From: Actinomycetota bacterium | GTDB lineage: Bacteria; Actinomycetota; Thermoleophilia; Solirubrobacterales; Solirubrobacteraceae | Assembly (NCBI GenBank): GCA_018268595.1 | Contig: JAFDWH010000013.1 | Location: 1-64,000 of the forward strand | Reading direction: 5' to 3' | DNA: 64,000 nucleotides | Shown here: in pieces, positions 34,837 to 57,451 of the stretch | How the letters are laid out: each line of letters opens with the position of its first letter | Numbering within the stretch: position 1 is the stretch's first letter | Made by a program: the position numbers and the translations under genes | Notes under the pieces: generated by a model | What the model was told of the DNA's origin: nothing | Seen by the model: only the letters and a program-made list of their open reading frames with translations | The model's database searches: none

Positions 34837-34840
34837 CGGC

Positions 34841-34867: not shown

Positions 34868-34910
34868 TTGTTTTCGGGGCCGCTTCGTGCGGGCTCGGCG
34901 GCGTGCGCGT

Positions 34911-34929
34911 GGGTCCCGTGTGGGGTCCC
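34911..34929 (+). repeat. Paired GGGTCCC repeats inside left element end (arm-site candidates)
   Basis: GGGTCCC occurs at 34911-34917 and 34923-34929, 12 bp apart, about 80 bp inside attL. The same heptamer pair occurs at 56164 and 56175 near the inner right end. Tyrosine integrases bind such arm-type repeats with an N-terminal domain. Confidence 0.5.
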
Positions 34930-34949
34930 GCAGGCGCTGGAAGTGGGGT

Positions 34950-36373: not shown

Positions 36374-36376
36374 CTG

Positions 36377-39866: not shown

Positions 39867-40084
39867 CCAGCGTCACGACCGACCGCGCACCCGTAAGCCG
39901 CACAGAGGAGCCACCAGACCGGGATCGCCAGCCGAGAGCGATGGTGCTGGCGAAGGCGGCGTAGATGGCAACGATCTCACCGGCGTTCACGAGGCGCGAG
40001 CCTCGCACCGGGCGTGGCGGCTCACCTCTTAGCGTGCAGAACTAAGGCGCATCGCGCAAGTACCCCGGTAGCCTCCGGCCCGCC
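39867..40084. other. Intergenic gap without recognised gene
   Basis: About 220 bp lie between the P450 gene and the next membrane-protein gene. A 61-codon frame exists on the minus strand (39823-40008) with a short hydrophobic run, but it has no family match and overlaps the P450 end. I see no repeat or RNA feature. Confidence 0.4.
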
Positions 40085-40804: not shown

Positions 40805-40809
40805 GCGCC

Positions 40810-41370: not shown

Positions 41371-41468
41371 CCATCCTTCGCGAGGCGACGCCTCTTCGCG
41401 CGCAACAGGTGCATCAGCGTCAGTGCCGCTGGGTTCTTGCGGCGATGTGGACCCTGAAATGGGGCTGG

Positions 41469-43979
41469 TCACTCCAGCAGCGCCTCCCGCGTCGGGACCT
41501 GAGCGGCCAAGTAGCTGGCGGCGGCGGCGATCGCGAAGGCCGTGAGCGCGAGGACCGCGTAGGCGGTCCCCGCGACGGGAAGCGCAAGCGAGGATTGGAC
41601 GGGGAAGCCGGTGACGGTCGTCAGCGTGCGGTTGAGCAGCTGAGCGCCGCAGATGCCGAACAGCGCGCCGATCGTGCAGCCAACGATTAGCAGCACCGCC
41701 GTCTCGATCAGCAGCGCGTGCCACACGCGGCGGGTACTGATCCCGAGCAGCTTGACAGCGGCGATGCGCTGCCGACGCTGCCAGACCATCGCACCCATCG
41801 CGGCCGCCATCGCCAAGGCGGCGGCACCCAGCATCAGCCCGGCGATCTGCGTCAAGCGCGCCAAGCCCTGACGGGCCGCCTCGCGCTGGCGCTGCTCGCG
41901 CTCGGCGGCCGTCTCGACCGTCAACCCCGATCCTGGGCGGAGCGCGCGCTGCACGAGCGCTCTGCCCTTTGCCGGCGAGACGCCTGCGGCGAGCGTGACC
42001 CGCAGCGCGCTCGCGTCCGTGCTGCCCCACGCGCGTGCGTAGTCGGTGGCGTTGAGCACGATCGTGCCGGGCGTCCAGCCGAGGTTGGAGATGATCGCGG
42101 CGACCCGCACGCGGACCGCCTTGGGGGCTCTGAGCGTGAACGCCTCGCCGACCGACAGGTGCCGCTCCTGGGCGAGTGCCTCGGAGAGCGCGACCCACCC
42201 GCGTCCACGCAATCGAGCCGTCGCCTGGGCTGGATCGCCGTCGAGCACCTGCCCGGGCGGGACCGGCTCCGCTGCGCTCCTCGGCGGGGCCATCACCCAC
42301 ACCCGCCGATCGCCGAGATCCAAGAACGCGCCGCGCTGGACCTCCACCCGTCGGACTGCAGAAACCCTTCGCAACCGCGCTTCCGCGTCCACGTCGAACG
42401 GCGTCGTCGCCAGTGCGTTCGCCGTGCCCGCCGCGGTCACCCACACGTCCGTGACGGCGCTCAGCTCGTGCACGTCTTGATCCAAGCCGCGCTGCAGGTC
42501 TCGATGCGACCCCTCCAGCGCGACGGCTCCCAGCAGCGCGATCCCCGCGATTGCCGCCACGGCCACCGACCGAGCCCCGCTGGCGCGCAACTCACCGACA
42601 GCGAGCAGCGGCGCGGAGCTGTGCATCCATGCGCGCGTGCGGTCCACCCCCGTGAGCGCCGCGCCGAGGATCCAGGGCAGGCTCAGCAGCAAGGCAGCGA
42701 TCAGCGTCACGATGCCGAGAGCGGCCGCTTCGGGCGCCGTCATGCGGACGAGCATCGAAACGCCGAGACAGACGACCCCAGCCGCGAACGCCCACCGCTT
42801 GGGCGCTCGTGCGGAGCCGCCGCGGACGTAGGCGGTCCTGCTCGCCGGTCGCGGCCACAGGGTCGGCAGCAGCGGCACGAACGTCGCGAGCAACGATGCG
42901 AGCAGGCCTCCAGCGACGGCGACAGCGATCGTGCGCAGGTCGACGAGGCGACCGATGCCTACCGGGAAGGCGAGCGCGAGATAGCCGGGACTCGGCGGGA
43001 AGACCGTCCGCGAGAGCAGCTCGCCGAGAGCCAGCCCGAGCGCCGACGCGACGATCCCCAGCACGAGCGCGTCCACGGCGAGCACTCTCGCAATCGTCCG
43101 CCGGCTCAAGCCGAGCCCGCGCAACTCGGCGATCAGCTCGCGTCGTTGGCCGGCGACGAGCAGCAGCGCGTTGAACGCGAACAGGAACCCCACGAACGCG
43201 CTGATCGCCGCGAACAGTCCGGTCGACTGATCGTTCGGTGCCGCCGCCTGCGCGAACACCCGCGCGTCGAAGTCGACCGGCCGCACGTCCAACCGACCTG
43301 CAGCGACACGCCGCAACAATGCTTCGACCGCCTCCTCGCGACCCGGACGCGCCGCCACGTACGCACGCGAGACGCGGCCCTCGAGACCCGTCAGCTCCTG
43401 CGCATAGGCGAAGGGCAGCAGCACACCCGTGATCTCGCTCAAGTCGCCGACGTCGGCCTGATTGACGATCGCGCCGATCGATACCTGCTTCGCGCGGCCC
43501 TTCACATCGAGCGTCGCACTACCGCCGAAGCGCGCCCCGACCGCGTCGGCGACCGCGCGCGGCAGCATCGCCGTGCGCACACCTCGGTAGACCGTCTCGA
43601 AGCGGGCGACGTCGCCGCCCAGGCTTCGAAGTCCGCCCCCGGCCGCGAAGATCGTGACCGAGGCGCTGCCGCCTGGACCCGTGACGCTCGCCGGCACCTC
43701 GACCACCGGCACCGCCGCGCGCACGTCCCGGTTGCGGGCGAGGATGCGGACCGTACGCTGGTCGAAACCGTCCGGGCTGCGCGCGACGAGTTGCCACTGC
43801 GCTCGGCCGAACAACCCCTCTGTCAGCTGCTCGACCGATCCGGAGAGGCTCGTGCTGGAGACCTGCACCGAGTAGAGCAGCGCCACGCCGACGGCGATCC
43901 CGACGAGCGCGAGCAGCTCCTGCACCCGCCGCGCACGCAGCCGTCGCCGGTAGAAGAAGACGAGGTTCGACAGGCTCAC
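41469..43979 (-). CDS. FtsX/MacB-type ABC permease, minus-strand copy
   Basis: The 836-residue permease starts at GTG (VSLSNLVFFYRRRLRARRVQELLALVGIAVGVALLY). It has the double FtsX layout: an N-terminal helix, a large extracytoplasmic domain, three helices around residues 255-370 (GLFAAISAFVGFLFAFNALLLVAG), a second outside domain, and a final three-helix set. It is a close paralogue of the permease at 47294, with long stretches almost identical in DNA. Its start overlaps the upstream small gene (GTGA). No ABC ATPase gene lies in this operon, so it may use the ATPases coded in the divergent operon. Confidence 0.9.
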   Translation of the reverse strand: MSLSNLVFFYRRRLRARRVQELLALVGIAVGVALLYSVQVSSTSLSGSVEQLTEGLFGRAQWQLVARSPDGFDQRTVRILARNRDVRAAVPVVEVPASVTGPGGSASVTIFAAGGGLRSLGGDVARFETVYRGVRTAMLPRAVADAVGARFGGSATLDVKGRAKQVSIGAIVNQADVGDLSEITGVLLPFAYAQELTGLEGRVSRAYVAARPGREEAVEALLRRVAAGRLDVRPVDFDARVFAQAAAPNDQSTGLFAAISAFVGFLFAFNALLLVAGQRRELIAELRGLGLSRRTIARVLAVDALVLGIVASALGLALGELLSRTVFPPSPGYLALAFPVGIGRLVDLRTIAVAVAGGLLASLLATFVPLLPTLWPRPASRTAYVRGGSARAPKRWAFAAGVVCLGVSMLVRMTAPEAAALGIVTLIAALLLSLPWILGAALTGVDRTRAWMHSSAPLLAVGELRASGARSVAVAAIAGIALLGAVALEGSHRDLQRGLDQDVHELSAVTDVWVTAAGTANALATTPFDVDAEARLRRVSAVRRVEVQRGAFLDLGDRRVWVMAPPRSAAEPVPPGQVLDGDPAQATARLRGRGWVALSEALAQERHLSVGEAFTLRAPKAVRVRVAAIISNLGWTPGTIVLNATDYARAWGSTDASALRVTLAAGVSPAKGRALVQRALRPGSGLTVETAAEREQRQREAARQGLARLTQIAGLMLGAAALAMAAAMGAMVWQRRQRIAAVKLLGISTRRVWHALLIETAVLLIVGCTIGALFGICGAQLLNRTLTTVTGFPVQSSLALPVAGTAYAVLALTAFAIAAAASYLAAQVPTREALLE

Positions 43980-44326
43980 GAGGAGGAGGCCGACACGGCT
44001 TGAGCCGCCTCCCGAGCACGGGACTGGACATGCTCCGCCAGCGCCACCGCCAACGCCATCCGCTCGCGAGCACCCGAAACGAGCTGCGGCTGCACCGCCT
44101 CGAGAAACGCGACGACCGCCTGCGTCAACTCGTCGGAGGCGTGTCGGAGTCGTGTCAGCTGCTCAGGGGACGCATCCTCGAAGCAGAGCAACTCCGGTGC
44201 CGCGTGCGCGAGCGCAATCTGGCCGCTGAGTCGGTCCGTCGCGGCGCTCGCGACCGCGAGGCTGGTGCCGGCCGCCAGCAGCTCCCCGGCGTCGGTTGCT
44301 CGCACCGGGGGTCGTTGGTCGATCAC
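43976..44326 (-). CDS. Uncharacterised protein coupled to permease gene
   Basis: The 116-residue protein starts at GTG 44326, which overlaps the previous stop (GTGA). It ends in a TGA overlapping the permease start. The sequence is helix-rich and mildly acidic: DAGELLAAGTSLAVASAATDRLSGQIALAHAAPEL, then LTRLRHASDELTQAVVAFLEAVQPQLVSGARERMALAVALAEHVQ. No membrane helix, Cys or catalytic motif is visible. It is translationally coupled on both sides, so it is probably a cytoplasmic partner of the permease or its neighbour. Function unknown. Confidence 0.65.
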   Translation of the reverse strand: MIDQRPPVRATDAGELLAAGTSLAVASAATDRLSGQIALAHAAPELLCFEDASPEQLTRLRHASDELTQAVVAFLEAVQPQLVSGARERMALAVALAEHVQSRAREAAQAVSASSS

Positions 44327-44928
44327 GATGGTCCCCCGTCGACCCGCAGCTGCTCGGCCCCGTTGCGCAACGCGACGATCAGCAGCCCGACCGCACCGGG
44401 CTCGATCTCGTCGAGGGGGATGTCGACATCGATCGCCGCTTCGTCGCCGATGCGATCCACGAGCTGCGCCGGGAACTGCCGGAGTCCTCCGAGGAGGTCG
44501 CGCAGCGTCGCCTCCGAGATCCATGGCTCGCCGACCGATTCGAGCGCGTCGGCGAGCGCCAGCAGCCCTTCACGGGCAGGCAGCAGACGCACGGCAAGTC
44601 GAAGCTGACGCGCGTCGGCGATCCCTGATCGCAGCCAGTCGGCTGCTGCACGCTCGACCGCATCGACGCCGACGTCGAGCGACCGGAAGTCGCGTTGCGC
44701 CAGCGCTTCGCGCAGCATGTGCGCGAGCTCGGCCACCTCCAGCAGCTCCTCGAGCTCGCTGACGATCCGGCGCTGCCGCTCGATCGAAGCTTCGACCTCG
44801 TCGCCCACGTAGATGGTGCTGGCGGCGTAGTCCTCGAGATCCCGTGCCAGCCGCTCCACGACCTCGCGCTCGAGCCCAACCAGCTCGTGCAAGCGGATCA
44901 GCGCCAACGCGCCCGCTGCGTCGTCCAC
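44323..44928 (-). CDS. Uncharacterised helical protein, first gene of permease operon
   Basis: The 201-residue protein starts at GTG 44928 behind a GGGAG. It is almost wholly helical, with charged stretches ELVGLEREVVERLARDLEDYAAST and VEASIERQRRIVSELEELLEVAELAHMLREAL suggesting coiled coils. The C-terminal half ends with IPLDEIEPGAVGLLIVALRNGAEQLRV. No membrane segment is seen. Its stop overlaps the next start (GTGA), so three genes are co-translated with the minus-strand permease. It lies divergent from the PadR-ABC-permease operon, with a regulatory gap between. Function unknown. Confidence 0.7.
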   Translation of the reverse strand: MDDAAGALALIRLHELVGLEREVVERLARDLEDYAASTIYVGDEVEASIERQRRIVSELEELLEVAELAHMLREALAQRDFRSLDVGVDAVERAAADWLRSGIADARQLRLAVRLLPAREGLLALADALESVGEPWISEATLRDLLGGLRQFPAQLVDRIGDEAAIDVDIPLDEIEPGAVGLLIVALRNGAEQLRVDGGPS

Positions 44929-44975
44929 CGCCCCGTCTCCCTCACTCCCCCGTGGTTCCGTCTGAACACGATTGT

Positions 44976-45007
44976 GGGAGGCGGGCTTGGGGGACAGCCC
45001 GCCTCCC
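44976..45007. terminator. 12-bp perfect stem-loop in divergent promoter gap
   Basis: GGGAGGCGGGCT pairs perfectly with AGCCCGCCTCCC around the 8-nt loop TGGGGGAC. It lies 48 bp upstream of the minus-strand operon start, so it is not at a gene end. An attenuator or an operator is as likely as a terminator. Confidence 0.5.
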
Positions 45008-45106
45008 GCACCGGCGTCGGGAGGGCGCCGGCGTTCGCGGGGACGCTGCTTCTGGGGGATCGCGCCCCTGCCGAGCGCACGGTATGGCCGGGTTCGGAAT
45101 CGGGTC

Positions 45107-45125
45107 AACCCCAAAACACGGAATA
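45107..45125 (+). repeat. Shared 19-bp element, copy 1
   Basis: AACCCCAAAACACGGAATA; copy 2 at 50943-50961 differs by one base (T for C at position 11). It lies about 150 bp upstream of the PadR-like gene. It could be a promoter or operator shared by two transcription units on the element. Confidence 0.55.
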
Positions 45126-45271
45126 TCCGGCGGACGCGGACTTTGGACTCAGCTCGCGCTCGGACTCGTATACGCCGGGCGCCAGACCACCAGCGCGCGG
45201 GTTCGCACACACCAGTACGTTTCGCCCAGCAGGTCTTGGAGGCGGGTCTGCGAGCGATCGGGGACGACCGG

Positions 45272-45880
45272 ATGGGCATGAAGGAGGCGATGCTCGGCGA
45301 GGTGGCGGACCAGCCGCTGCGTCGAACTGCGCTCGTGCGCCGGCTGCGGCGCAGACATCCGCTCGCTCGCTGGCAGGGGGTCGACACGATGGTCGACAAG
45401 CTTCGGCGAGAGGGTCTGCTGAGCGCGGTCGTCCTCGCCGCAGACGCCGATCCGGACGGCGATCACGCTGCGTTCGATCCCGCGGGCCACGATGACGAGG
45501 CCCGCGATCCGCGTGAAGATCCGACGCCTGTAGGGCTGTCGCCCGCAGGGCGCGAGCAACTGCGCGCGTGGCTCAGCGGAGAGGCGCCGCCCGGGACGTT
45601 CCGCGATGACCTCCTGCTCCAGATCGCCGCGTCGGAGATGGACGACCTTCCGGCGCTCGAGACGATCGTGCGCGAGCGTTGGACGACGGTCACAGACCTC
45701 GCCGCGGAGGACAACGAATCGTCCGCAACGGTTCCGGTCAAACCGGATGATTGGCACCGGAAGCGACTGCTGGTGGCACGAGAGCTCGACCGGAGCATCC
45801 TCGACGGGCTCGCACGAGGTCTGCGGCGCGCGCATGCGCAGATCGTCGATGCTCTCGAACAGCCTCCGCAAGACCGATGA
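45272..45880 (+). CDS. PadR-like winged-helix regulator coupled to degenerate ABC gene
   Basis: The 202-residue protein starts MGMKEAMLGEVADQPLRRTALVRRLRRRH, which corresponds to the PadR first helices. GVDTMVDKLRREGLLSAVVLAAD follows as the recognition helix and wing. The C-terminal half (PPGTFRDDLLLQIAASEMDDLPALETIVRER) is helical like the PadR dimerisation region. It is clearly related to the protein at 51485. ATGA overlap couples it to the degenerate ABC gene. PadR proteins repress their own operons, often in response to a toxic ligand that the transporter handles. Its HTH is more diverged than the 51485 copy. Confidence 0.75.
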   Translation: MGMKEAMLGEVADQPLRRTALVRRLRRRHPLARWQGVDTMVDKLRREGLLSAVVLAADADPDGDHAAFDPAGHDDEARDPREDPTPVGLSPAGREQLRAWLSGEAPPGTFRDDLLLQIAASEMDDLPALETIVRERWTTVTDLAAEDNESSATVPVKPDDWHRKRLLVARELDRSILDGLARGLRRAHAQIVDALEQPPQDR

Positions 45881-46586
45881 CCCTCCTCGCGCTCGAGCAC
45901 GTCGACAAGACCTACTACCGCGGAGGGCGCCACCGTCTCCGAGTCCTGCGCGACGTCGCACTTGATGTCGATGCCGGAGAGCTCGTCGCGGTCGTCGCCG
46001 ATCCCACCGCCGGCAAGACCACCCTGTTGCGCATCGCCGCCGGGCTGGAGCCACCCGACGGCGGCACCGTCCGCCTCGTCGGTGAGCCGCTTCCGGCCAC
46101 GAACGATCCCGACCCGCGGATCGCGCTCGTCACGCGCGCCCCGCCGCCACGCGAGACGATGACGATGCGGATGCTCGACCTGGTCGCGATCCCGCTCTTG
46201 GAGCAGATGTCGCTGGCCAAGGCGCATCGGCGTGTCACTCCGATGCTCGAAGCGCTCGGCGTCGGCGACCTGTCGAGCGCGACGTGGGTGGAGCTGTCCG
46301 ACGCGGAGCGCGTCGCGATTCGGATTGCGCAGGCCGTGGTGCGCAAGCCGCTGCTGCTGCTCGTCGACGACGTGATGGCCGGACTTGGCATCGCTCATGT
46401 CGACGCCGTGCTGGGATGTCTGCGCCATGCAGCCGATGCCGACCGCACGGCGGTCCTGATGACGGCCGGCAGCCTCGAGGAGACGGCCCGCGTCGACACG
46501 CTCTACTCGCTGAGCGCCGGCTCGCTCGTCGCGATGTCGACGCACGAGCGCGGCCAAGTGTTCGATTTCCCGGCGGAGCGCCGTTG

Positions 46587-46587
<1 letters not shown>
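45877..46587 (+). CDS. Degenerate ABC ATPase-like protein, operon copy
   Basis: The 236-residue ABC-fold protein starts MTLLALEHVDKTYYRGGRHR. Walker A reads ADPTAGKTT (first Gly lost, K47 kept). The signature is LSDAERVA instead of LSGGQ. Walker B ends in VDD, so the catalytic Glu is Asp, and the H-loop His is absent (LMTAGS). ATP binding is possible, but normal hydrolysis is unlikely. It is translationally coupled to PadR before it (ATGA) and to a canonical ABC ATPase after it (TGATG). It could pair with the canonical subunit as a heterodimer or act as a sensor. A family of such proteins appears three times in this window. Confidence 0.85.
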
Positions 46588-47293
<706 letters not shown>

Positions 47294-47297
<4 letters not shown>

Positions 47298-49816
47298 GCC
47301 TGTCGAACCTCGTCTTCTTCTACCGGCGACGGCTGCGTGCGCGCCGCGTGCAGGAGCTGCTGGCGCTGGTCGGGATCGCCGTCGGCGTGGCGCTGCTCTA
47401 CTCGGTGCAGGTCTCCAGCACGAGCCTCTCCGGATCGGTCGAGCAGCTGACCCAGGGGCTGTTCGGGAAGTCGCAATGGCAGTTGGTCGCGCGCGGCCCG
47501 CGCGGCCTCGACGAACACCTGGTGTCGCAGCTCGAGGCGTCCCGCGACGTGCGGGCAGCCGTGCCCGTCCTCGAACTGCCGGCGAGCGTCAACGGCCGTA
47601 CGGGCACTCGTACGGTGTCGTTGATCGGCGTCGATCCGCGCATCGGCCAGGTCGGTGAGGGAAGCCTGCCGACGGGCTACGGCACGGTCCTCGCAGCGCT
47701 GCGGGCGCTCGCGCTTCCCTCAGCCGTCGCGGGCGCCATCGGCGCGAGATTCGGCGACGCCGTGACACTCGACGTCGGCGGCCGCGCACAACCGGCCCGC
47801 GCCGGGGTGGTCCTGAGCCGCGACCAGTTCGGCGCGCTCGCCGACGCGCCGATCGTGGCGGCCCCGCTCACATACGCCCAGGAGCTTGCGGGGATGCCAG
47901 GCCGCGTCTCGCGTGTCTACGTGGCGGCGCGCCAGGGGCGCGAGCAGGCGGTCGAGGCGCTGTTGCACCGGGTGGCAGCGGGTCGGTTGGACGTGCGGCC
48001 GGTCGACTTCGACGCACGGGTGTTCGCGCAGGCCGCGGCACCGAACGACCAGTCGACCGGACTGTTCGCCGCGATCAGTGCGTTCGTGGGGTTCCTGTTC
48101 GCGTTCAACGCGCTGCTGCTTGTCGCCGGCCAACGACGCGAGCTGATCGAGGCGCTGCGACTGTGGGGCTTTCGCACCGGCAGCATCGTGCGGATCCTCG
48201 TCTTCGACGCCGTCGTCCTCGGCCTGATCGCCTCGGCGCTCGGACTTGCGCTCGGCGAGCTGCTCTCGCGGACTGTGTTCCCCCCAACCCCCGGCTACCT
48301 CGGGCTTGCGTTCCCCGTTGGCGCCGGTCGGGTCGTGCGATGGGAGACCGTCGCGATCTCACTTGGCTGCGGCGTGCTCGCCGCCGTGCTTGCGACGCTC
48401 GTGCCGCTCGTGTTGGACATCTCCGGGCGCTCGGATCCGGAGGCCGCAGGAACGGACGCCGGCAGCCTCGCCCGCGCGCTCCGTTCGCGGTGGACGCTCG
48501 TCGCGAGCATCGCCCTGCTTGCGATCACCGTCGTCGTGCTGATCGCGGCCCCGGGCGCCGCCGTCGTCGGCATGCTGGCGCTGATCGCGGCCATGCTCCT
48601 GCTCTTGCCACGGCTGCTCTCCGCCATCTTGAGCGTCGGCGCACGCATGCAGCACCGGGTCCGCGGCTCCGTCGTAATGCTGGCGGTCGGCGAGCTGCGC
48701 GCAGCGGGGTTCCGCTCGGTGGCGATCACTGCCATCGCAGGCATCGCATTGCTGGGCAGCGTCGCCGTCGAGGGATCGCACCGCGACCTCCTGCGCGGGC
48801 TGGATCGGGACGTGCACCAGCTGACCGCGGTCACCGACGTGTGGGTGACCGCCCCCGGACCCGCCAACGCGTTGGCGACGACGCCGTTCGGCATCGACGC
48901 CGCTCGGCGGCTGGAGCGGAGCGCCGGCGTCGCGGCGGTCGGCGTGCAGCGCGGCGGCTTCTTCGACGTGGGCGACCGACGCGTGTGGGTGCTGGCGCCG
49001 CCGGCGACCTCCGCGGAGCTGGTGCCGGGGGAGCAGGTGCTCGAGGGCGATCCGGCCCAGGCTACGACCCGGCTGCGTGGGCACGGATGGGTCGCGCTCT
49101 CCGAGGCGCTTGCACACGAGCAGGGCGTCTCCGTGGGGGACACGTTCTTGCTCAGAGCGCCGCAGCCCACCCGCATGCGGGTCGCGGCGATCATCTCCAA
49201 CCTCGGCTGGACACCGGGCGCGATCGTGCTCAACGCCGACGACTACGCCCGCGCCTGGCAGACCACGGACGCCAGCGCACTCCGGGTCACGCTCGATCCC
49301 GGCATCTCTCCGGCCGCCGGCAGAGCCTTGGTCGAGCGGGCGCTCGGCGCCGGCTCCGGGCTCACGGTCGAGACCGTTCCAGAGCGAGAGCGCAGCCAAC
49401 GCCAGGTCTCTCACGACGGGCTCGTGCGCCTCACGCAGATCGCCGTGCTCATGCTGGGCGCCGCCGCGCTTGCGATGGCCGCCGCCATGGGCGCGATGGT
49501 CTGGCAGCGCCGCCAGCGCCTCGCCGCCGTCAAGCTGCTCGGCGTCCCCACCCGCCGCCTCTGGCACGCCATGCTGCTCGAGGCCGCTGTGCTGCTTGCG
49601 GTCGGATGCACGATCGGAACCCTGGCCGGCATCTACGGCGCCCAACTGCTCAACCGCACCCTCACCACCGTCACCGGATTCCCCGTCACGCCCTCACTTC
49701 CGATCCCGGTCGCCCTCGCTGCCTACGGCAGCCTCGCGCTGATCGCCTTCACCATCGCCGCCGCCACCAGCTACATCGCCGCCCAAGTCCCGACCCGAAC
49801 CGCACTCCAAGACTGA
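47294..49816 (+). CDS. FtsX/MacB-type ABC permease, plus-strand copy
   Basis: The 840-residue permease starts at GTG with the same VSLSNLVFFYRRRLRARRVQELLALVGIAVGVALLY as the copy at 43979. It has a double FtsX layout with eight helices in all and two large outside domains. Family members extract or export lipids and peptides without transporting through a pore, using mechanotransmission. The operon partners are a PadR regulator, a degenerate ABC and a canonical ABC ATPase; a terpene synthase follows 33 bp downstream. The substrate might be a terpenoid or lipid, which is inference. Confidence 0.93.
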
Positions 49817-49849
49817 ACGGACGAGGACGCCCAGGCATGGTCCTCGCCG

Positions 49850-50962
49850 ATGAACGATCGCCGACGCACGCCGACAGAGGCGCTCGCGCTGCTCGGCGTC
49901 GCTTGGCGCGGCGTCACCTGGACGATCCCGAGCGTCAAGCGAGAGCTGCGCGGCTGGCGCGAGCGAGCGCTCTGCATCCCTGATCCGGCACTGCGCGCCG
50001 ACGCCTTGGAGACGCTGCGTCGCGAGCACATGAACGCGCACGGTGCCGCGCTGTTCGCCGTGCTGCCGCGCACACGCAGCCGACCGCTGTTGCGCCTGCT
50101 CGTCGCCTTCCAGGTCGCCCTCGACTACCTCGACACGGTCACCGAGCGACCTGCTCTAGACGAGCGCGCGCACGGCGACCGGCTTCATCGCGCGCTCGTC
50201 GACGCGCTCGATCCCAACGCCACTCCAACGGACTACTACGACGAGCGGCCATGGGAGGACGACGGCGGCTACCTGCGCGGGCTCGTCGAGACGTGCCGGC
50301 GCGAATGCGCCGCGCTGCCCGGCTACTCGACGGTGCGTCCATACGCCCTGAGCGCGGCCTCCGATCTCTCCGTTCAGGTTCTCAACCACCTCACTCACCC
50401 GGCTGAGCGCGACGCAGCGATCCGCGCCTGGGCCGATGGCGAGGGACGCCGCGACAGCGAGCTGCAGTGGTTCGAGCGCGCCGGTGCCGCCAGCTCGACG
50501 CTCGGCATCTACGCACTGCTCGCCATCGCCGCCGCTTCGCAGCTGCGCGCAAACCAGATTCGCGCGGTCGACGCCGCGTACCGCCCCACGGTCTGCCTCC
50601 TGTGCACGTTGATGGATAGCCTCGCCGACTACGAGGAGGACCGTGCCACTGGGGTGCACAGCTACGTCGCTCGCTACGGCGACGCTGTGGTCGCGATCGA
50701 GCGAATCTCTGCCCTCGTTCCACGAGCGCTCGCCGAGGTGCGTCGGCTGCCGAGCGGACCACGACACGCTGTGATCGTGAACGGGATGGTCGCGATGTAC
50801 CTCTCGAAGCAAGGTCCCCGCAGTGCGCTGCTCCGCGAGAGCTCGCGACAGATCCGTATGCGCGTCGACTGGATGGCGGCCGTGGCGATGCCCGTGACTC
50901 GCATCATGGAACGGAGGCGCGCCCGCTCAACTCGTGGGCGAGAACCCCAAAATACGGAATAA
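49850..50962 (+). CDS. DUF2600-family terpene synthase-like protein
   Basis: The 370-residue protein matches DUF2600. Blocks include REVRAW-like VKRELRGWRERALCIPDP, a first acidic motif DYLDTVTE (D92, D95, E99), ELQWFERAGAASSTLG, and a second acidic motif DSLADYEED (D256, D260, D264), then HSYVARY and HAVIVNGMVAMYLSK. The family includes Bacillus tetraprenyl-beta-curcumene synthase (YtpB), a large-terpene cyclase. The acidic motifs would bind Mg-diphosphate. It lies 33 bp after the permease gene and is probably the last gene of the same operon. No prenyl-diphosphate synthase is coded nearby, so host isoprenoids must supply substrate. Confidence 0.88.
   Translation: MNDRRRTPTEALALLGVAWRGVTWTIPSVKRELRGWRERALCIPDPALRADALETLRREHMNAHGAALFAVLPRTRSRPLLRLLVAFQVALDYLDTVTERPALDERAHGDRLHRALVDALDPNATPTDYYDERPWEDDGGYLRGLVETCRRECAALPGYSTVRPYALSAASDLSVQVLNHLTHPAERDAAIRAWADGEGRRDSELQWFERAGAASSTLGIYALLAIAAASQLRANQIRAVDAAYRPTVCLLCTLMDSLADYEEDRATGVHSYVARYGDAVVAIERISALVPRALAEVRRLPSGPRHAVIVNGMVAMYLSKQGPRSALLRESSRQIRMRVDWMAAVAMPVTRIMERRRARSTRGREPQNTE
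50943..50961 (+). repeat. Shared 19-bp element, copy 2
   Basis: AACCCCAAAATACGGAATA overlaps the last codons of the terpene synthase gene and lies about 130 bp before the XRE gene. It matches copy 1 (45107) at 18 of 19 positions. Confidence 0.55.
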
Positions 50963-51089
50963 ATGGGTTCCTCTCAGAGCAGGCAGATCGTATGTTGGCC
51001 GCGCCAAGAGCCGGTAACGGTCCTGCGGATCGCTACGAGTGCGGGTCCGCGACCGGCAAACGAGCGGGTCGCGGGCCCGCGAGCACGAG

Positions 51090-51419
51090 ATGACCCTTCA
51101 ACAGTCCACTCCCCGCATCGCGCTCCGCTCGGCCGAGAGAGACGACGATGTGCTCTTCCGCCGCGCGCTCGCCAAGACGATTCGTCGACTGCGGCGCGAT
51201 CGAGAGCTGTCCCAGGCCGAACTCGGCGAGCGCACCGGGCTCGCGCGGAACCACATCGGCGAGATCGAGCGCGTGCCACGCAACCTGACGCTGCAAACGA
51301 TCGTCTCCCTTGCAAGAGCGTTCGACATGCACGTCTCGGAGCTGCTTGCGCGGGCGGAGGAGTTCGCTCGCGAGCAAGCTTCCAACCAGCGCAGTCCCGA
51401 CGGCTCCGCCGCCCCCTGA
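51090..51419 (+). CDS. XRE-family HTH regulator
   Basis: The 109-residue protein has one central XRE HTH (about 28-85): FRRALAKTIRRLRRDRELSQAELGERTGLARNHIGEIERVPRNLTLQTIVSLARAFDMHVSELL. This is a close match to the Cro/C1 family. The N-terminal and C-terminal tails are short and polar. It precedes a PadR-like gene and a degenerate ABC gene (module B), separated by 65 bp. It could be an element-encoded repressor or the immunity-type regulator of the island. Confidence 0.9.
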   Translation: MTLQQSTPRIALRSAERDDDVLFRRALAKTIRRLRRDRELSQAELGERTGLARNHIGEIERVPRNLTLQTIVSLARAFDMHVSELLARAEEFAREQASNQRSPDGSAAP

Positions 51420-51484
51420 GGTTCCTGTACGTTTGAGTTCATTAGGCGGCCCTCGACCGTCGTGATGCGGAGGCGAACGCGCAA

Positions 51485-52030
51485 GTGGGGATGACGCATG
51501 CCGTGCTGGGGGCCGCGAAGGAGGGACCTGCCTCCCGCTACGAGCTGCTCATGCGGCTGCGGCGCGACTTCCCGCTGTGGAACTTCAGCAGCGGCGGCGT
51601 CTATCACGCCGTCGACAAGCTGACGCCCCACTTGCTGCGTCCCTGCGACGGCGACAAGACCACAGGCGACTATGAGCTGACGGCCACGGGAGACATCCGC
51701 CTGCGCGCGTGGGTGCGCAGACCGTCGCGGCCTGGGCCGTTCCGCGACGACCTGCGGCTGCAGATCGCCTACTCAGAGCCCGAGGACCTTCCCTGGATCG
51801 AGCAGCAGATCCGCGAGCGCCTCAGATGGATCGGCGAGCAGCAGGCGGCGCTCCGCGACGTCAGCCACCTTCGCGAGCTGCGGCGCCTCCAGAAGCCATG
51901 GAGCATCACGCGCCTGCTGGTCGCTCGCGCCATCCAGCTCGCGGTCCTCGACGGGCTCGCGCGCGGCCTGCGACGAGCCCAGGCCGAGATCATCACTGCG
52001 ATCGAGCAGAGCGCGCAGCAGGACCGATGA
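51485..52030 (+). CDS. PadR-like transcriptional regulator, module B
   Basis: The 181-residue protein starts at GTG with GMTHAVLGAAKEGPASRYELLMRLRRDFPLWNFSSGGVYHAVDKL, a canonical PadR winged helix (THAVLG and S/G-YELL motifs). The C-terminal half (RPGPFRDDLRLQIAYSEPEDLPWIEQQIRERLRWIGEQQAAL) matches the PadR-like protein at 45272. GGAGG precedes the GTG at about 11 nt. Its stop overlaps the following ABC gene (ATGA). It is better conserved as a PadR protein than the module A copy. Confidence 0.88.
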   Translation: MGMTHAVLGAAKEGPASRYELLMRLRRDFPLWNFSSGGVYHAVDKLTPHLLRPCDGDKTTGDYELTATGDIRLRAWVRRPSRPGPFRDDLRLQIAYSEPEDLPWIEQQIRERLRWIGEQQAALRDVSHLRELRRLQKPWSITRLLVARAIQLAVLDGLARGLRRAQAEIITAIEQSAQQDR

Positions 52031-52743
52031 CGCTCCTGGCTCTGGAGAACGTCAGCAAGACGTACTACCGGGGAGGCCGTCACCGTCTCCCGATCCTGCG
52101 CGACGTCAGCCTGCACGTCAATGCCGGCGACGTCGCTGCGATCGTCGCTGACCCGACCGCCGGCAAGACCACCCTGCTGCGCATCGCTGCCGGCCTCGAG
52201 CCGCCCGACACCGGCACCGTCAGCCTCGCGGGCGAGCCGCTCCCGGCCACGAACGACCTCGACCCACGGATCGCGCTCGTCACCCGCACCCCACCACCGC
52301 GCGAGACCACGAGCTTGCCGGTGACCGACTTCGTGGGGCTGGCGCTCATGGACCGTATGCCGACTCGCGAGGCGCGTCAACGCACGGACGCGATCCTCGA
52401 CGCCTTCGATCTCCACACGCTCGCGGGCTCCACATGGCCCGAGCTGTCGGACGTGGAGCGAACACTGATCCGGATCGCGCAGGCAGTCGTTCGCCGACCG
52501 ACGCTGCTGCTGCTCGACGATCCCGTCCTCGGCCTCGGCATCTCAACTACGGAGACGGTCCTCTCGCAGATCCGCGACGCGGCCCGAACACACGCGACGG
52601 CCGCACTGATGACCGTCGCGCACCCGTCCGAGGCGGTGCATGCGGACACGATGCTCACGTTGAACGCCGGCACGCTGATGCAGACATCGAGGCACCAGAA
52701 TCGTGGCCAGCTGCTGGACTTTCCGACGGGCCGGGTGTCCTGA
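52027..52743 (+). CDS. Degenerate ABC ATPase-like protein, orphan module B copy
   Basis: The 238-residue protein starts MTLLALENVSKTYYRGGRHR. It is a close relative of the gene at 45877. Walker A is ADPTAGKTT, the signature LSDVERTL, Walker B ends in LDDP (no catalytic Glu), and the H-loop is shifted (LMTVAHP). No canonical ABC gene or permease follows, unlike module A: the next gene on this strand is unrelated. This looks like a truncated duplicate of the module, or a subunit that acts with a distant transporter. Confidence 0.85.
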   Translation: MTLLALENVSKTYYRGGRHRLPILRDVSLHVNAGDVAAIVADPTAGKTTLLRIAAGLEPPDTGTVSLAGEPLPATNDLDPRIALVTRTPPPRETTSLPVTDFVGLALMDRMPTREARQRTDAILDAFDLHTLAGSTWPELSDVERTLIRIAQAVVRRPTLLLLDDPVLGLGISTTETVLSQIRDAARTHATAALMTVAHPSEAVHADTMLTLNAGTLMQTSRHQNRGQLLDFPTGRVS

Positions 52744-52788
52744 GCAAGCCGCTGCTGACGGACCGCCAATGTCGGCCGTGTCTCAGCA

Positions 52789-53079
52789 TCAGCGCGCGGA
52801 ACGAGCCCGCATCGCATCCCGCGTGCGCGTCTCAGCTCGGGCGACGATCTCGGTCGGCGTGATGTGGAGCACACCGCACACGAGGAAGAGGCGATCCCAT
52901 CGGAGGACGTGGCGGCCGTTCTCCCACTCCCAGATACGGCTGGGGCGGATGTCGAGACTCTCAGCCACGGCGCTCTGCGACATGCCGACCTCTTCGCGGC
53001 GCTCTCGGAGCACAGCGCCGAGGGCGATTCGGAACTCGCCGGGATCGAGGCGGAAGAAATCGATGTCGGCGTCGGGCAT
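52789..53079 (-). CDS. XRE-family HTH regulator divergent from unknown operon
   Basis: The 96-residue protein has an XRE HTH (about 12-70): LGAVLRERREEVGMSQSAVAESLDIRPSRIWEWENGRHVLRWDRLFLVCGVLHITPTEIV. ATG 53079 (MPDADIDFF) is the best start; upstream sequence is not HTH-like. It is divergent from the three-gene operon at 53231, with about 150 bp between, so it is the likely regulator of that operon. The HTH has a Trp-containing recognition helix (SRIWEWENG). Confidence 0.85.
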   Translation of the reverse strand: MPDADIDFFRLDPGEFRIALGAVLRERREEVGMSQSAVAESLDIRPSRIWEWENGRHVLRWDRLFLVCGVLHITPTEIVARAETRTRDAMRARSAR

Positions 53080-53230
53080 CTGAGCGCCGGGGACCGGCCC
53101 TGCCTGGGCGCCCGGACCGGCTGAGCGTATCCCGTGTGACGGCCTCCGATGGTCACCTGCAGCAGGGCATGTCTGAGAAGCCATCAGCCGTACTGCACCC
53201 CCGCCTGTTTCACCGGGCTATGGTGCATCG

Positions 53231-53923
53231 ATGGGGATCGTCGATGAGGGGTACCGGCGCAAGGTCCTTCAGCCGCGCCCGGACATGCGCCCAGAGGACT
53301 GGATGGCCGTTCCCACCCTGAACTGGGTTTGGCGCCAGCCGGTCGTCGAGCTGGAGCAGCAGGTGCGGCTCTTCATGCACTCGCTGATGTTCGCCGTCGA
53401 CGCCACGAGCGACGGCGGCGCCGTCCAATTCGTGATCCTGCTCGGCGTCGAGCCGAAGCCCGATGAGACGGAGCTGTCGGTCGTCTGCCCGTTGGGCGCT
53501 CCGCTGGCCCAGCTACGAACCGCCCTCGCCACGCAGGATCTGGCGCCGGCCGGGGAGGTGGACATCGAGATGAGGTTCGGCGCCCGCAGCGACGTGCACG
53601 TGCCGGTCGTGGTCGACTGCGACCGCGCCACGGGCCGCTACGCGTTCAACAACCACAACCAGCTCGCCGACCCGAAGCAGTTCATGAACCCGTACGCGTG
53701 CCGGAGCACGTCCGGCTTCCTCAACTTCATCGGCGCGCGCGAGATCATGGGTCCGGGGATGGTGGTCATGACCGACCTGGACACGCTGCACGACAAGGGT
53801 CTCGACGAGTGGTTCCGCTGGCTCTGCTGCACCACCGAGACCGGCGTCAGCTTCGACGCGGAGCGGCTGCTCGTGCGGCGCGACGACCCGGAGATCTGGA
53901 TCTACGACTACGACGGGAGTTGA
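53231..53923 (+). CDS. Uncharacterised protein, gene 1 of unknown three-gene operon
   Basis: The 230-residue protein shows mixed alpha/beta character and no signal peptide. Marks: DWMAVPTLNWVWRQPVVELEQQVRLFMHSLMF, VEPKPDETELSVVCPLGAPLAQL, VPVVVDCDRATGRYAFNNHNQL, and ALREIMGPGMVVMTDLDTLHDKG-like HDKGLDEWFRWLCCTTETGVS. It has a Cys pair in CCTTETG and a NNHN motif. I recognise no family. It is followed 5 bp later by the next gene in the operon, so all three genes are co-transcribed. It is probably a cytoplasmic enzyme or adaptor. Confidence 0.75.
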   Translation: MGIVDEGYRRKVLQPRPDMRPEDWMAVPTLNWVWRQPVVELEQQVRLFMHSLMFAVDATSDGGAVQFVILLGVEPKPDETELSVVCPLGAPLAQLRTALATQDLAPAGEVDIEMRFGARSDVHVPVVVDCDRATGRYAFNNHNQLADPKQFMNPYACRSTSGFLNFIGAREIMGPGMVVMTDLDTLHDKGLDEWFRWLCCTTETGVSFDAERLLVRRDDPEIWIYDYDGS

Positions 53924-53928
53924 CCGCG

Positions 53929-54312
53929 ATGCCTGGCACGCCCCAGCTCAAGATCGAGGACCTCGGCAAGATCGACATGCTCGACATCGAGGCGCGCGCG
54001 GGAAGGCAGAACGTCCGGCGCACGGAGACAGCGGTGGCGGACGGCTCCTACGGCGAGCCGATCCTGTTCGCGCTGACGCTGCTCACCGCGGCGGCGCTGC
54101 GCGCGTACGTCGCCCACACCGTCGCGAATGTCGAGATGGCGCCCACCAGGGAGCTCACGCAGAAGGTCACGGTATTGCGGGACGGCGAGGTCGTGGAGGT
54201 GCGCGAGATCACGTTCAAGGAGCGCAGGGGCGAGCCGCTCGCCGACACCGTCGTGCGCGAGCTCTCGGCGATCCCCGGCCTCGACACCGCGCTGGGCGAG
54301 CTGGCGACATGA
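53929..54312 (+). CDS. Uncharacterised small protein, gene 2 of unknown operon
   Basis: The 127-residue protein starts MPGTPQLKIEDLGKIDMLDIEARAG. It has one hydrophobic stretch (about 43-65, PILFALTLLTAAALRAYVAHTVA) that could be a membrane helix or a buried core helix. The C-terminal part reads TQKVTVLRDGEVVEVREITFKERRGEP and looks like a small beta domain. Its stop overlaps the start of the HEGTHH gene (ATGA), so the two are translationally coupled. No family is known. The coupling suggests a partner or substrate of the large protein. Confidence 0.7.
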   Translation: MPGTPQLKIEDLGKIDMLDIEARAGRQNVRRTETAVADGSYGEPILFALTLLTAAALRAYVAHTVANVEMAPTRELTQKVTVLRDGEVVEVREITFKERRGEPLADTVVRELSAIPGLDTALGELAT

Positions 54313-56087
54313 CCGGGGCCGACCCGCTCGTCACGCCGCTCGGCGGGCGCAGCGCGATCGACCCGACCACGAACCTCGCACACCTCGCGCAGGTGCGCCT
54401 CGAACAGGACGCCGGCGCGCTGGTCGCGGGCGAGCTCACGAGCGCGGCCCTGCCGGCCTTCCTGCACGAGGGCACGCACCACCTGTGCTTCTTCTCGCCG
54501 GTCGGCCTCACGCTCGCACTGCTGAACATGCGCGCACGCCGCCGAGCGCTCCTGATCGCGTTCCAGACCAGGCCGGTGCCGCTGGAAGCCTCGCCCCGGC
54601 CGGACAGCATCGACGTGCTCGACGACTACGTGCGACAGGACGCGGTCACCCGCGCGCTGAGACCGCTCGCCGAGGGCCTCGCGACCTTCGCGGAGTTCGA
54701 CGCGCTGCCGGGCACGTCGCCCATCTCCACAGAGCTGATGACGATGCTCCTCGGTCACTTCATCCGCCATGCGGATCCGTCGGCGAATCCGTGGGACACG
54801 TTGGCTTCCACCCTCCGCCACGAGCGGTCGGCCCTCCCCTACGCGCATCGCAAGGCGAGCCTGCTCGCGCAGTCGATGGACCCGCTGCAGGGCGGCTACC
54901 TCGCCGGCTACCTGTTCGTCAAGCGGCTGTGGCACCACGCCGCCTCGATCGACTCGCGGCTGGACGACACCGACCTCTTCCTCAGCCTGCTCGTGACCTA
55001 TGTCTACAACGACTTCGGCCTGGTCGCCCACCTGCTCGACTCCGGGACCAGCGACGCGGGCGCGGCGACGGCGATCCTGCGCCACCTCCATGATCGCGTG
55101 GTCAAGCTCATCGGCTCGATGACCGCCGACTGGGTCGACGAGGTCGAGGCCGGGCACGATCAGCCGTTCCTCGACCAGCGGCCCCACGGCGACCTCATGA
55201 GCACGATGCAGCAGATCCCCTCGCTGGGCACCGATCCCGCCCTGGCGGAGGCCGGCCGGGAACGGCTGGCGGCGCTCTATGCCGAGCTGGAGCGCGAGGC
55301 GGGCGACGACGCCGGGCCGCTCGGCGGCCTGCCCTCCCGGCAGCTGTGGGCCGTCGCGCAGCGCCAGCTGCTGCTGCTCGGCGCGCTCGCCGTCGAGGTC
55401 GACGTGAACGAGCGCGGGCACGTGCGCGTCTGGCGAGGGAGCGAGCTGCTCACGTCCGGGCCCGGCATCGACGGCGTGCAGCAGTGCGCCCGCACGCCCG
55501 GGTCGCTCGCGATCTTCGTCAACCCGTGGCGGTGGGGCCGCTTCATGGCGTTCACCGCCAGCGTCGACGGGCACCCGCTGCTCGTCTGGTTCAGTCGCGA
55601 CGTCAGTGCCGTGCTCAAGGAGCAGTTCCTCCAGTTCCTGACCGACCCTGTGCTCGCAGCGACCGCAGACCGGGCTCAAGCCGTGGTCGTGGAAGCCCAC
55701 CTGCGCCAGGACGAGACCGCCCAGATCGTGCTCGCCGCGGTGCGCGACCAGCTCGAGCACTGGAGCAGGCAGCTCTACTCGATGACCGCGCTGGCGTTCG
55801 TGGAGCCCGGCGCGCTGGACGCGACGGTCGATCGCATGACCCCGGACGGGCTGCTCCCCATCCTCGGAAGCCTGCCCCACCTCCGCGCGCTGGCCTGGTT
55901 GAGCCTCAACTGGATGCTCCATGACGACCCGCAGGAGCTGGCCGGCGCGTTCCGGGAGGCCGAGGTCTTCCACGGCGCCGGGCCCGAGCTCTGGCCGGTC
56001 GTGGAGGAGATCGTCGTCCGCGCACAGGCAGCACTCGGCGAGCCGCTCCTGATCAGAGGCGCCCGCTTCGTGAGCTGCACCGTCTGA
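54309..56087 (+). CDS. Putative zinc metallopeptidase-like protein (HEGTHH), gene 3 of unknown operon
   Basis: The 592-residue protein has the motif FLHEGTHHLCFFSP (H53, E54, H57, H58), an HExxH-type zinc site. About 65 residues on lies LAEGLATFAEFD (E122), a fitting third ligand for a gluzincin-type peptidase. The rest is mostly helical and has no membrane segment or signal, so it should act in the cytoplasm. Later blocks include SLLAQSMDPLQGGYLAGYLFVKRLWHH and LPHLRALAWLSLNWMLHDDPQELAGAF. I recognise no family. Coupled to gene 2 by ATGA. A protease that cuts gene 1 or 2 products, or a target outside, is a testable guess. Confidence 0.8.
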   Translation: MTGADPLVTPLGGRSAIDPTTNLAHLAQVRLEQDAGALVAGELTSAALPAFLHEGTHHLCFFSPVGLTLALLNMRARRRALLIAFQTRPVPLEASPRPDSIDVLDDYVRQDAVTRALRPLAEGLATFAEFDALPGTSPISTELMTMLLGHFIRHADPSANPWDTLASTLRHERSALPYAHRKASLLAQSMDPLQGGYLAGYLFVKRLWHHAASIDSRLDDTDLFLSLLVTYVYNDFGLVAHLLDSGTSDAGAATAILRHLHDRVVKLIGSMTADWVDEVEAGHDQPFLDQRPHGDLMSTMQQIPSLGTDPALAEAGRERLAALYAELEREAGDDAGPLGGLPSRQLWAVAQRQLLLLGALAVEVDVNERGHVRVWRGSELLTSGPGIDGVQQCARTPGSLAIFVNPWRWGRFMAFTASVDGHPLLVWFSRDVSAVLKEQFLQFLTDPVLAATADRAQAVVVEAHLRQDETAQIVLAAVRDQLEHWSRQLYSMTALAFVEPGALDATVDRMTPDGLLPILGSLPHLRALAWLSLNWMLHDDPQELAGAFREAEVFHGAGPELWPVVEEIVVRAQAALGEPLLIRGARFVSCTV

Positions 56088-56163
56088 GGACAGCCGCCGC
56101 GAACCGCCGATCGGACGGGTCGGACTCGCCGACGCTGACCTTGCGATTGGCTCCCCGTAGCGC

Positions 56164-56181
56164 GGGTCCCACCTGGGTCCC
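56164..56181 (+). repeat. Paired GGGTCCC repeats near inner right end (arm-site candidates)
   Basis: GGGTCCC at 56164-56170 and 56175-56181, 11 bp apart and about 130-150 bp inside the tRNA remnant. They mirror the pair at 34911 and 34923, so both ends of the main element carry the same heptamer. Confidence 0.5.
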
Positions 56182-56311
56182 AACCCGCTTGTCAGCTCCA
56201 GTCCACGCCAGTACCCTCCAGTCATGCCGTGTCATCGAAACACGGCGATGTGCAGGGACTTCAGCGGACTCCGCACGACCCAGCCAGACCCATCGGACCG
56301 CCCGGGTCTCG

Positions 56312-56355
56312 ATGGTAAGGAAGGGGTCATCGGTTCGAGTCCGATGGAGGGCTCT
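56312..56355 (+). repeat. tRNA 3'-end remnant with compensatory T-arm (inner attachment site)
   Basis: The block ATGGTAAGGAAGGGGTC is identical to the tRNA-Thr copy. The T-arm then reads ATCGG-TTCGAGT-CCGAT instead of GCGGG-TTCGAGT-CCCGC, with both stem strands changed together. It ends in GGAGGGCTCT. It is thus the 3' half of a different functional tRNA, carried as attR of the main element. Its own hairpin terminator follows. Confidence 0.85.
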
Positions 56356-56361
56356 GCGAGG

Positions 56362-56384
56362 AAGCCCCGCTCATGGCGGGGTTT
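56362..56384 (+). terminator. Hairpin after tRNA remnant
   Basis: AAGCCCCGC pairs with GCGGGGTTT around the loop TCATG; T residues follow. It matches the position of the terminators after the other two tRNA 3' ends. Confidence 0.65.
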
Positions 56385-56428
56385 CGTCGTTTCGGAGGGT
56401 CGGCGCTGCTTGGGCGTCAGATGGCGGC

Positions 56429-56445
56429 GGGTACGAAACGGGTAC
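56429..56445 (+). repeat. Paired GGGTAC repeats at left of 1.1-kb remnant
   Basis: GGGTAC at 56429 and 56440, 11 bp apart, about 75 bp inside the tRNA remnant. Three more copies with the same spacing lie at the other end (57292, 57303, 57314). Confidence 0.5.
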
Positions 56446-56558
56446 CGCGGCAGGGCCACCAACGATTAGCCATGCGGGCGGTGCTCGCCGCGGTCGCGCG
56501 AGCGTCTGTGCCGGCCGCACCGGGTTTCGCCGAATTCCCCTCGGCGCGCTCGCGCGCG

Positions 56559-56921
56559 TCAGGCCGCGTGCGCCAGCTCGCGCATGCGGCCGAGCGGGTG
56601 GCGGCCGACGTGCGTGGCGACCGCGTACGGCTCCCGGTCGCGGCCGTGCGCGCGCCACTGCACGAGCACCGGCGTCAGGCCGCGCACACCGTCGAGCCAA
56701 TGCAGCACCGGGTTGTGCCGGCGCGGGATCAACAGGATCTCGTGCTCGGCGGTCACGACCACGACGGCCTTGCCCTCGTCGTGCAGCAGTTCCCACGCAG
56801 CTCTGTCTGCCCACGGCTGATCGCCCGGCAGGAACGAGACGTGATCCGGGTAGCCGAGATCGTCGTCCGCCAGCGCGGCCCGCGTGAACAGCTCGTGCAT
56901 CTTGTCCTGGACGTCGGTCAT
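56559..56921 (-). CDS. Uncharacterised protein in element remnant
   Basis: The 120-residue protein starts MTDVQDKMHELFTRAALADDD and is soluble and acidic at the start. Blocks include DHVSFLPGDQPWADRAAWELLHDEGKAVVVV, EHEILLIPRRHNPVLHWLDGVRGLTPVLVQWRAHGRDREPYAVATH. It looks like a small alpha/beta fold. Its ATG overlaps the stop of the upstream gene (ATGA), so the two are made as a pair. The two small genes are all that remains between the attachment sites. A toxin-antitoxin-like pair is possible but nothing proves it. Confidence 0.6.
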   Translation of the reverse strand: MTDVQDKMHELFTRAALADDDLGYPDHVSFLPGDQPWADRAAWELLHDEGKAVVVVTAEHEILLIPRRHNPVLHWLDGVRGLTPVLVQWRAHGRDREPYAVATHVGRHPLGRMRELAHAA

Positions 56922-57265
56922 CGCGTGGACTCCCACTCGCGAACGATAGCGGCCCACGAATCCCGGCACGCGAGTATCGCGGCCTGCATCGCGTCGTTCA
57001 CCGGCCCGCGCGTCACGGTCGGCGGCTGCTTCTCATCGCCGACGTAGCGGTGCTCGTGATGCTCGTCCGGGTCGTGCGCGTTGTCAAACACGCGCACCGT
57101 GTGCCAGCGTCCCTCGCGGCGCGCCATCAGCACGACGGCGTACTCGACTGGATGCGTGCTCGACCGCGTGATCTCGATGCGCACATCGTCGTCCGGTCGC
57201 TCCTCGCGGCTTCGATCCTTGGGACTCACGACCAGCCATGAAAGCCGCCCGGCCGGACTGACCAC
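56918..57265 (-). CDS. Uncharacterised partner protein in element remnant
   Basis: The frame gives about 115 residues from GTG 57265, or 122 from TTG 57286. VSPAGRLSWLVVSPKDRSREERPDDDVRIEITRSS begins the core, then HPVEYAVVLMARREGRWHTVRVFDNAHDPDEHHEHRYVGDEKQPPTV. This short beta-type core with a histidine-rich middle resembles small DUF7718-like proteins that pair with a second small gene on actinobacterial mobile DNA; the match is from memory and uncertain. The stop overlaps the next gene (ATGA). The start is unresolved because no clear ribosome-binding site is visible. Confidence 0.55.
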   Translation of the reverse strand: MVSPAGRLSWLVVSPKDRSREERPDDDVRIEITRSSTHPVEYAVVLMARREGRWHTVRVFDNAHDPDEHHEHRYVGDEKQPPTVTRGPVNDAMQAAILACRDSWAAIVREWESTR

Positions 57266-57291
57266 ATCTATCTGTGCAATGACCAACCGGC

Positions 57292-57319
57292 GGGTACCGC
57301 GCGGGTACACGACGGGTAC
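57292..57319 (+). repeat. Triple GGGTAC repeats at right end of remnant
   Basis: GGGTAC at 57292, 57303 and 57314, each 11 bp apart, about 90-115 bp inside attR. With the pair at 56429 they bracket the remnant and look like integrase arm sites of a second, now lost, recombinase. Confidence 0.5.
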
Positions 57320-57406
57320 CCAGCACGTGCCTCGATGGTCCGGGGAGCTGGCCGAAATCCGCGTCCTGCCTGGACAGCGGAACACCATCGGGAACCCCCG
57401 GCGACG

Positions 57407-57451
57407 ATGGTAAGGAAGGGGTCGCGGGTTCGAGTCCCGCGGAGGGCTCTC
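57407..57451 (+). repeat. Right attachment site (attR)
   Basis: A 45-bp exact direct copy of 34792-34836 (ATGGTAAGG... to ...GGGCTCTC). A hairpin terminator follows at once. This is where the chromosomal tRNA 3' end stood before integration. Confidence 0.9.

What the first reader, a model, noticed from the sequence alone, without database searches (positions are those of the whole stretch)
56312..56355. Divergent third tRNA 3' end with compensatory T-stem changes
The T-arm stem differs on both strands at once (ATCGG/CCGAT against GCGGG/CCCGC) while the rest is identical. This piece must come from a different functional tRNA-Thr, so the main element probably came from another host. The 1.1 kb between it and attR is a second, older or smaller insertion.
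Basis: partly seen in the sequence, partly recalled or inferred. Interest (0 to 1): 0.65.

Follow-up and report, generated by a model that had tools for sequence, protein, structure and literature searches.

The report
Foreign tRNA end marking a mini-element
A leftover tRNA-threonine 3' end in a soil actinobacterium carries a different, still matching stem because it came in with a tiny 1.1-kb integrated DNA element lying beside a 21-kb one; the mechanism is known, but it shows how such elements can swap half of a host tRNA gene.

Summary
Block 56312-56355 matches the 3' 44 nt of the intact tRNA-Thr(GGT) gene (34761-34834) except at six positions, which are exactly three T-stem base pairs, all still paired. 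A third copy, 57407-57450, is identical to the tRNA. The ATCGG/CCGAT T-stem occurs in complete tRNA-Thr genes of many Solirubrobacterales, including the same genus, so a functional foreign source is well supported.

The assignment to the main element is probably wrong. Identity starts in the anticodon loop, and in three other genomes (G024, G109, G152) the displaced distal copy, not the intact tRNA, carries the stem seen in congeners. The crossover is therefore in the anticodon loop, and each element replaces the whole tRNA 3' half. Under that rule the ATCGG half came with the 1.05-kb segment 56312-57406, whichever element inserted first.

That segment has its own matched 11-bp-spaced arm repeats (CGGGTAC) at both ends, distinct from the main element's (GGGTCCC). 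It has two small genes and no integrase. The main element's 3' half (GCGGG) equals the distal copy and was found in no other genome searched, so nothing points to a foreign host for it.

Verdict: a tandem tRNA-integrated island plus a CIME-like mini-element.

The parts
34761..34834 (+). intact tRNA-Thr(GGT), attL of the main element; 5' half host, 3' half (from anticodon loop) inferred to be from the main element (T-stem GCGGG/CCCGC)
   Evidence: ARAGORN; RF00005; copies aligned
34911..34929 (+). left arm-type repeat pair GGGTCCC..GGGTCCC of the main element
   Evidence: +78/+90 from core; two such pairs in the window, shuffles mean 0.01
34950..35219 (+). excisionase-like HTH_17 protein
   Evidence: Pfam PF12728 7e-9; PHROG excisionase
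35216..36373 (+). tyrosine integrase of the main element (385 aa)
   Evidence: PF00589 2e-8, phrog_1 9e-48
34792..56311 (.). main integrative element, about 21.5 kb, including P450, ABC transporter, FtsX-like, DUF6119/TIGR04141 and DUF2600 genes
56164..56181 (+). right arm-type repeat pair GGGTCCC..GGGTCCC of the main element
   Evidence: -148/-137 from next core
56312..56355 (+). displaced tRNA-Thr 3' half with ATCGG/CCGAT T-stem: attR of main element and attL of the 1.05-kb element
56356..56394 (+). hairpin followed by T-rich sequence after the displaced 3' half (terminator-like, read by eye)
   Evidence: sequence
56312..57406 (.). integrase-less mini integrative element (about 1.05 kb between the cores)
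   Evidence: own arms at both ends; no integrase
56428..56445 (+). left arm-type repeats CGGGTAC..CGGGTAC of the mini-element
   Evidence: +75/+86; shuffles mean 0.03
56559..56969 (-). orfA, 136 aa, unknown; homologues 42-53% identical in four genomes of genus g15
56918..57388 (-). orfB, DUF7718 (borderline); homology to relatives starts at residue ~56, so the true start is probably near 57223
   Evidence: PF24839 1.6e-5
57291..57319 (+). right arm-type repeats, three CGGGTAC, of the mini-element
   Evidence: -116/-105/-94
57407..57450 (+). distal tRNA-Thr 3' half identical to the tRNA: attR of the array, inferred to be the older resident 3' end

Best explanation
Two elements stand in tandem in tRNA-Thr(GGT) of a Solirubrobacteraceae genome. 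Their integrases cross over in the anticodon loop, so each incoming element replaces the tRNA 3' half with the one carried on its attP and displaces the previous half to its far end. The block at 56312-56355 is the 3' half that arrived with the 1.05-kb mini-element 56312-57406, from a Solirubrobacterales lineage whose tRNA-Thr has the ATCGG/CCGAT T-stem. It is now the shared boundary of the two elements. The T-stem can differ because both its strands lie within the transferred half. The anticodon-stem and acceptor 3' strands cannot differ, because they must pair with the 5' strands that stay with the host. Shown: copies, T-stem identity with foreign tRNA genes, arm repeats at both ends of each element, absence of an integrase in the mini-element. 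Inferred: crossover point, trans-acting integrase, order of insertion.
For: Identity begins inside the anticodon loop in both remnants. In G024, G109 and G152 the intact tRNA and the displaced copy differ only in T-stem, and the displaced copy carries a stem seen in congeners (TGGGG/ATCGG in g19, ATCGG/GCCGG in g12, GCCGG/TCCGG in g15). In every one of these copies both stem strands match, so no crossover fell within the T-arm. In 15 of 16 genomes with several copies on one contig the acceptor 3' strand is identical between copies, although T-stems differ in four. Arm repeats: GGGTCCC at +78/+90 and -148/-137 of the main element, CGGGTAC at +75/+86 and -116/-105/-94 of the 1.05-kb segment, the same layout as in G005, G041 and G109; own-end pairs share a 7-mer in 4 of 10 elements against 1 of 90 mismatched pairs. 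Elements with GGTACC-aaac-GGGTAC arms in g19 genomes also carry ATCGG 3' halves. ATCGG complete genes in many relatives.
Against: No empty site or excised circle was seen. The closest relatives have other T-stems, so which 3' half is ancestral in this species rests on analogy. The identity of the intact-tRNA and distal halves needs the main element to share the resident stem. Half of the ten elements tested show no shared 6-mer arm pair by my criterion. The donor genus cannot be fixed: the base pattern after the mini-element's core (TCTGC) resembles a g12 genome, its arms resemble g19 elements.
Confidence: 0.83

Rival explanations
1. One reading: the ATCGG block is the main element's own attP core and the main element came from a host with an ATCGG tRNA-Thr.
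For: The block does abut the right end of the main element, and ATCGG genes exist in relatives.
Against: It needs a crossover 3' of the T-stem, whereas identity runs back to the anticodon loop and G024, G109 and G152 show 3'-half replacement. It leaves the ATCGG half outside the main element's arm repeats, next to those of the 1.05-kb segment.
Confidence: 0.1
2. The 1.05-kb segment is not an element but the right end of one 22.5-kb element or of a larger one truncated by deletion.
For: No integrase in it; its orfB-orfA pair sits just after an integrase gene in G156 and after an integrase fragment in G151, so an integrase could have been deleted.
Against: It has its own matched arm repeats at both ends at the canonical distances, different from those of the main element, and its own tRNA 3' half. 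Origin as a deletion derivative of a larger element is however compatible with the best explanation.
Confidence: 0.15
3. The T-stem changes arose by mutation in a pseudogene copy after integration.
For: The copy has no 5' half and should be free to drift.
Against: All six changes fall in three pairs and keep pairing, nothing else changed, and the result is letter for letter a stem in use in many relatives.
Confidence: 0.01

Closest known systems
tRNA-integrated genomic islands with anticodon-loop attP (Islander class A; PMC4383910)
   Same: intact tRNA at one end, displaced 3' fragment in the same orientation at the other, integrase near the tRNA end, tandem arrays known
   Different: the displaced fragment here differs from the intact gene by a coordinated T-stem change; the second unit is under the 2-kb limit and has no integrase, so Islander's filters would reject it
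cis-mobilizable elements (CIMEs) and accretion (discussed for tandem ssrA islands in PMC3146451)
   Same: attL and attR flanks, no integrase or transfer genes, in tandem with an integrase-bearing element
   Different: mobility was not tested; the arm repeats differ from those of the neighbouring element, so the neighbour's integrase may not serve it; only about 1 kb long
Dehalococcoides tandem ssrA islands (PMC3146451)
   Same: several islands in tandem behind one RNA gene, each marked by a 3'-end repeat
   Different: serine recombinase and a T-loop site there; tyrosine integrase and anticodon-loop site here

Membership tests
tRNA-integrated genomic island (main element) | intact tRNA plus displaced 3' fragment in the same orientation | tested here: met
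tRNA-integrated genomic island (main element) | tyrosine integrase inside | tested here: met
   35216-36373
tRNA-integrated genomic island (main element) | crossover in the anticodon loop | tested here: inconclusive
   identity boundary and three analogous replacements point there; strand exchange not mapped
tRNA-integrated genomic island (1.05-kb segment, Islander criteria) | integrase inside and length of at least 2 kb | tested here: not met
   no integrase by Pfam or PHROGs; the genome's PF00589 hits lie elsewhere; 1.05 kb
CIME (1.05-kb segment) | att sites at both ends | tested here: met
   tRNA 3' halves at 56312 and 57407 with matched arm repeats
CIME (1.05-kb segment) | lacks integration and transfer genes | tested here: met
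   only orfA and orfB found
CIME (1.05-kb segment) | mobilised by an integrase acting from outside | not testable with these tools
   needs excision assays; the closest GGTAC-arm integrase relative in the genome is the main element's, 40% identical

The most novel reading that the evidence does not exclude
The 1.05-kb unit is a naturally mobile, integrase-less mini-element (a tyrosine-integrase counterpart of a MITE) that spreads among Solirubrobacterales using other elements' integrases. Together with its kin it repeatedly replaces the 3' half of tRNA-Thr(GGT), making the T-stem of this tRNA evolve by transfer rather than by descent.
Probability: 0.25. Interest if true: 0.55.

Novelty: new member of a known kind. 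Interest (0 to 1): 0.36.

Why it matters
It gives a clean natural marker of which 3' half was carried by which element in a tandem array. It shows how elements reshape a host tRNA while keeping it functional: the T-arm, self-contained in the transferred half, may vary, while strands that pair with the host's 5' half may not. It also shows that very small integrase-less elements can be recognised by their arm repeats although standard island finders reject them.

Tried and rejected
Searches of IMG/VR for both 3' halves and for orfB, of plasmids for orfA and of phages for orfB found nothing. PADLOC, NCBIfam and PHROGs gave no family for orfA or orfB. The flanking repeat of the G151 copy (L102) is not a tRNA but a repeat with similar sequence around it, so that copy is not evidence for att sites. 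A test whether tRNA-Thr(GGT) T-stems turn over faster than a control tRNA: 13 stem types in 104 genomes against 5 in 117 for tRNA-Ile(GAT), within-genus disagreement 0.66 against 0.42 pooled, but only 0.51 against 0.43 as a mean per genus. That is suggestive at most, since the control tRNA may be an integration site too; tRNA-Thr(TGT) was matched in too few genomes to use. Synteny could not tell which stem is native: the tRNA block is inverted in this genome.

Full report
Observation. The window holds one complete tRNA, tRNA-Thr(GGT) at 34761-34834 on the plus strand. Its last 44 nt (34792-34835) recur at 56312-56355 and 57407-57450. The distal copy is identical. The middle copy differs at six positions, exactly three T-stem pairs, with pairing kept. 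In both remnants identity stops upstream of A34792, inside the anticodon loop. These are the only exact copies in the whole genome.

Source of the variant stem. The ATCGG/CCGAT half occurs in complete tRNA-Thr genes of many family members, including one of the same genus (G003). Among about 85,000 species genomes its exact 41-mer is found in 17 stretches: 15 labelled Solirubrobacterales or other Thermoleophilia (one a Conexibacter), one labelled only Actinomycetota, and one labelled Bifidobacterium breve (a MAG, probably mislabelled or contaminated). The GCGGG stem of the window's tRNA was seen in no other genome: 1 of 399 class genomes, which is its own, and 0 in the collection for the longer form (records of this genome may be left out there).

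Which element carried it. In G024, G109 and G152 the intact tRNA and its displaced copy differ only in the T-stem, and the displaced copy has a stem found in congeners. This is expected if the crossover lies in the anticodon loop and the incoming attP supplies the tRNA 3' half. Islander assigns 2083 of 3919 islands to such anticodon-centred sites (PMC4383910). By that rule the tRNA's present 3' half is the main element's, the half at 56312 belongs to the next unit to the right, and the half at 57407 is the older resident one. This holds whether the small unit inserted first into the tRNA or later into the main element's attR.

Why only the T-stem differs. Both strands of the T-stem lie in the transferred half and can vary together. 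The 3' strands of the anticodon and acceptor stems must pair with the host's 5' strands. Consistently, acceptor 3' strands are the same within a genome in 15 of 16 genomes with several copies on one contig, while T-stems differ in four; the sixteenth, G101, has one degenerate remnant.

The 1.05-kb unit. It has CGGGTAC repeats at +75/+86 from its left core and -116/-105/-94 from its right core. The main element has GGGTCCC at +78/+90 and -148/-137. Elements in G005, G041 and G109 have the same layout with other sequences. Such element-specific pairs with 11-12 bp spacing are what arm-type integrase sites would look like; binding is inferred. The unit has two overlapping genes, orfB (DUF7718, borderline) and orfA (no family), and no integrase. 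In G156 the same pair follows an integrase gene inside a 4.2-kb element at tRNA-Val. In G151 it lies beside an integrase fragment at tRNA-Arg. The unit is therefore best read as an integrase-less derivative of a small integrative element, CIME-like. The only integrase in the genome clearly related to the GGTAC-arm type is the main element's own, at 40% identity.

Elements with GGTACC-aaac-GGGTAC arms in genus g19 also carry ATCGG halves, so the mini-element's arm type and T-stem are consistent with that group. The donor genus is not proved.

Main element. 34792-56311 has an excisionase-like gene and a tyrosine integrase next to the tRNA, then P450, DUF6119/TIGR04141, ABC transporter, FtsX-like and DUF2600 genes. 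Nothing here indicates a foreign host for it: its 3' half has the same otherwise unseen stem as the distal copy.

Limits. No empty site, excised circle or mapped crossover is available. The order of insertion is open. A possible faster turnover of this tRNA's T-stem in the family is only suggestive.

Noticed in passing
window 20994-23154, 34761, 62496-64000; G000:C4 to about 65800: A GGDEF/EAL gene lies directly upstream of tRNA-Thr in G004, G005 and G006, and in G004 two further genes lie downstream; in this genome the same genes flank the block in the opposite orientation relative to the tRNA, so the tRNA with its elements appears inverted.
   Followed up: partly
window 57477-58504: Directly after the distal tRNA remnant lies a pair matching PADLOC candidate defence PDC-M21A/B (AbiEii-like second gene), perhaps cargo of an older insertion.
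   Followed up: no
L099 5379-9624: A 4.2-kb element at tRNA-Val(GAC) in G156 with integrase, orfB (DUF7718) and orfA in a row and a 22-bp attR repeat.
   Followed up: partly
L079-L082 (G041): Three successive integrase genes behind one tRNA-Thr, each after a tRNA or 3'-half copy with the same ATCGG stem.
   Followed up: partly
L100 6981-7510 and L104 9843-10292: orfA homologues lie directly upstream of tRNA-Val(CAC) in two genomes of genus g15, on the side opposite to the usual integration side.
   Followed up: no
L086 5617 (G101): The displaced tRNA-Thr copy in G101 has a shifted, unpaired T-stem 3' strand (CCCATC), a decayed or rearranged remnant.
   Followed up: no
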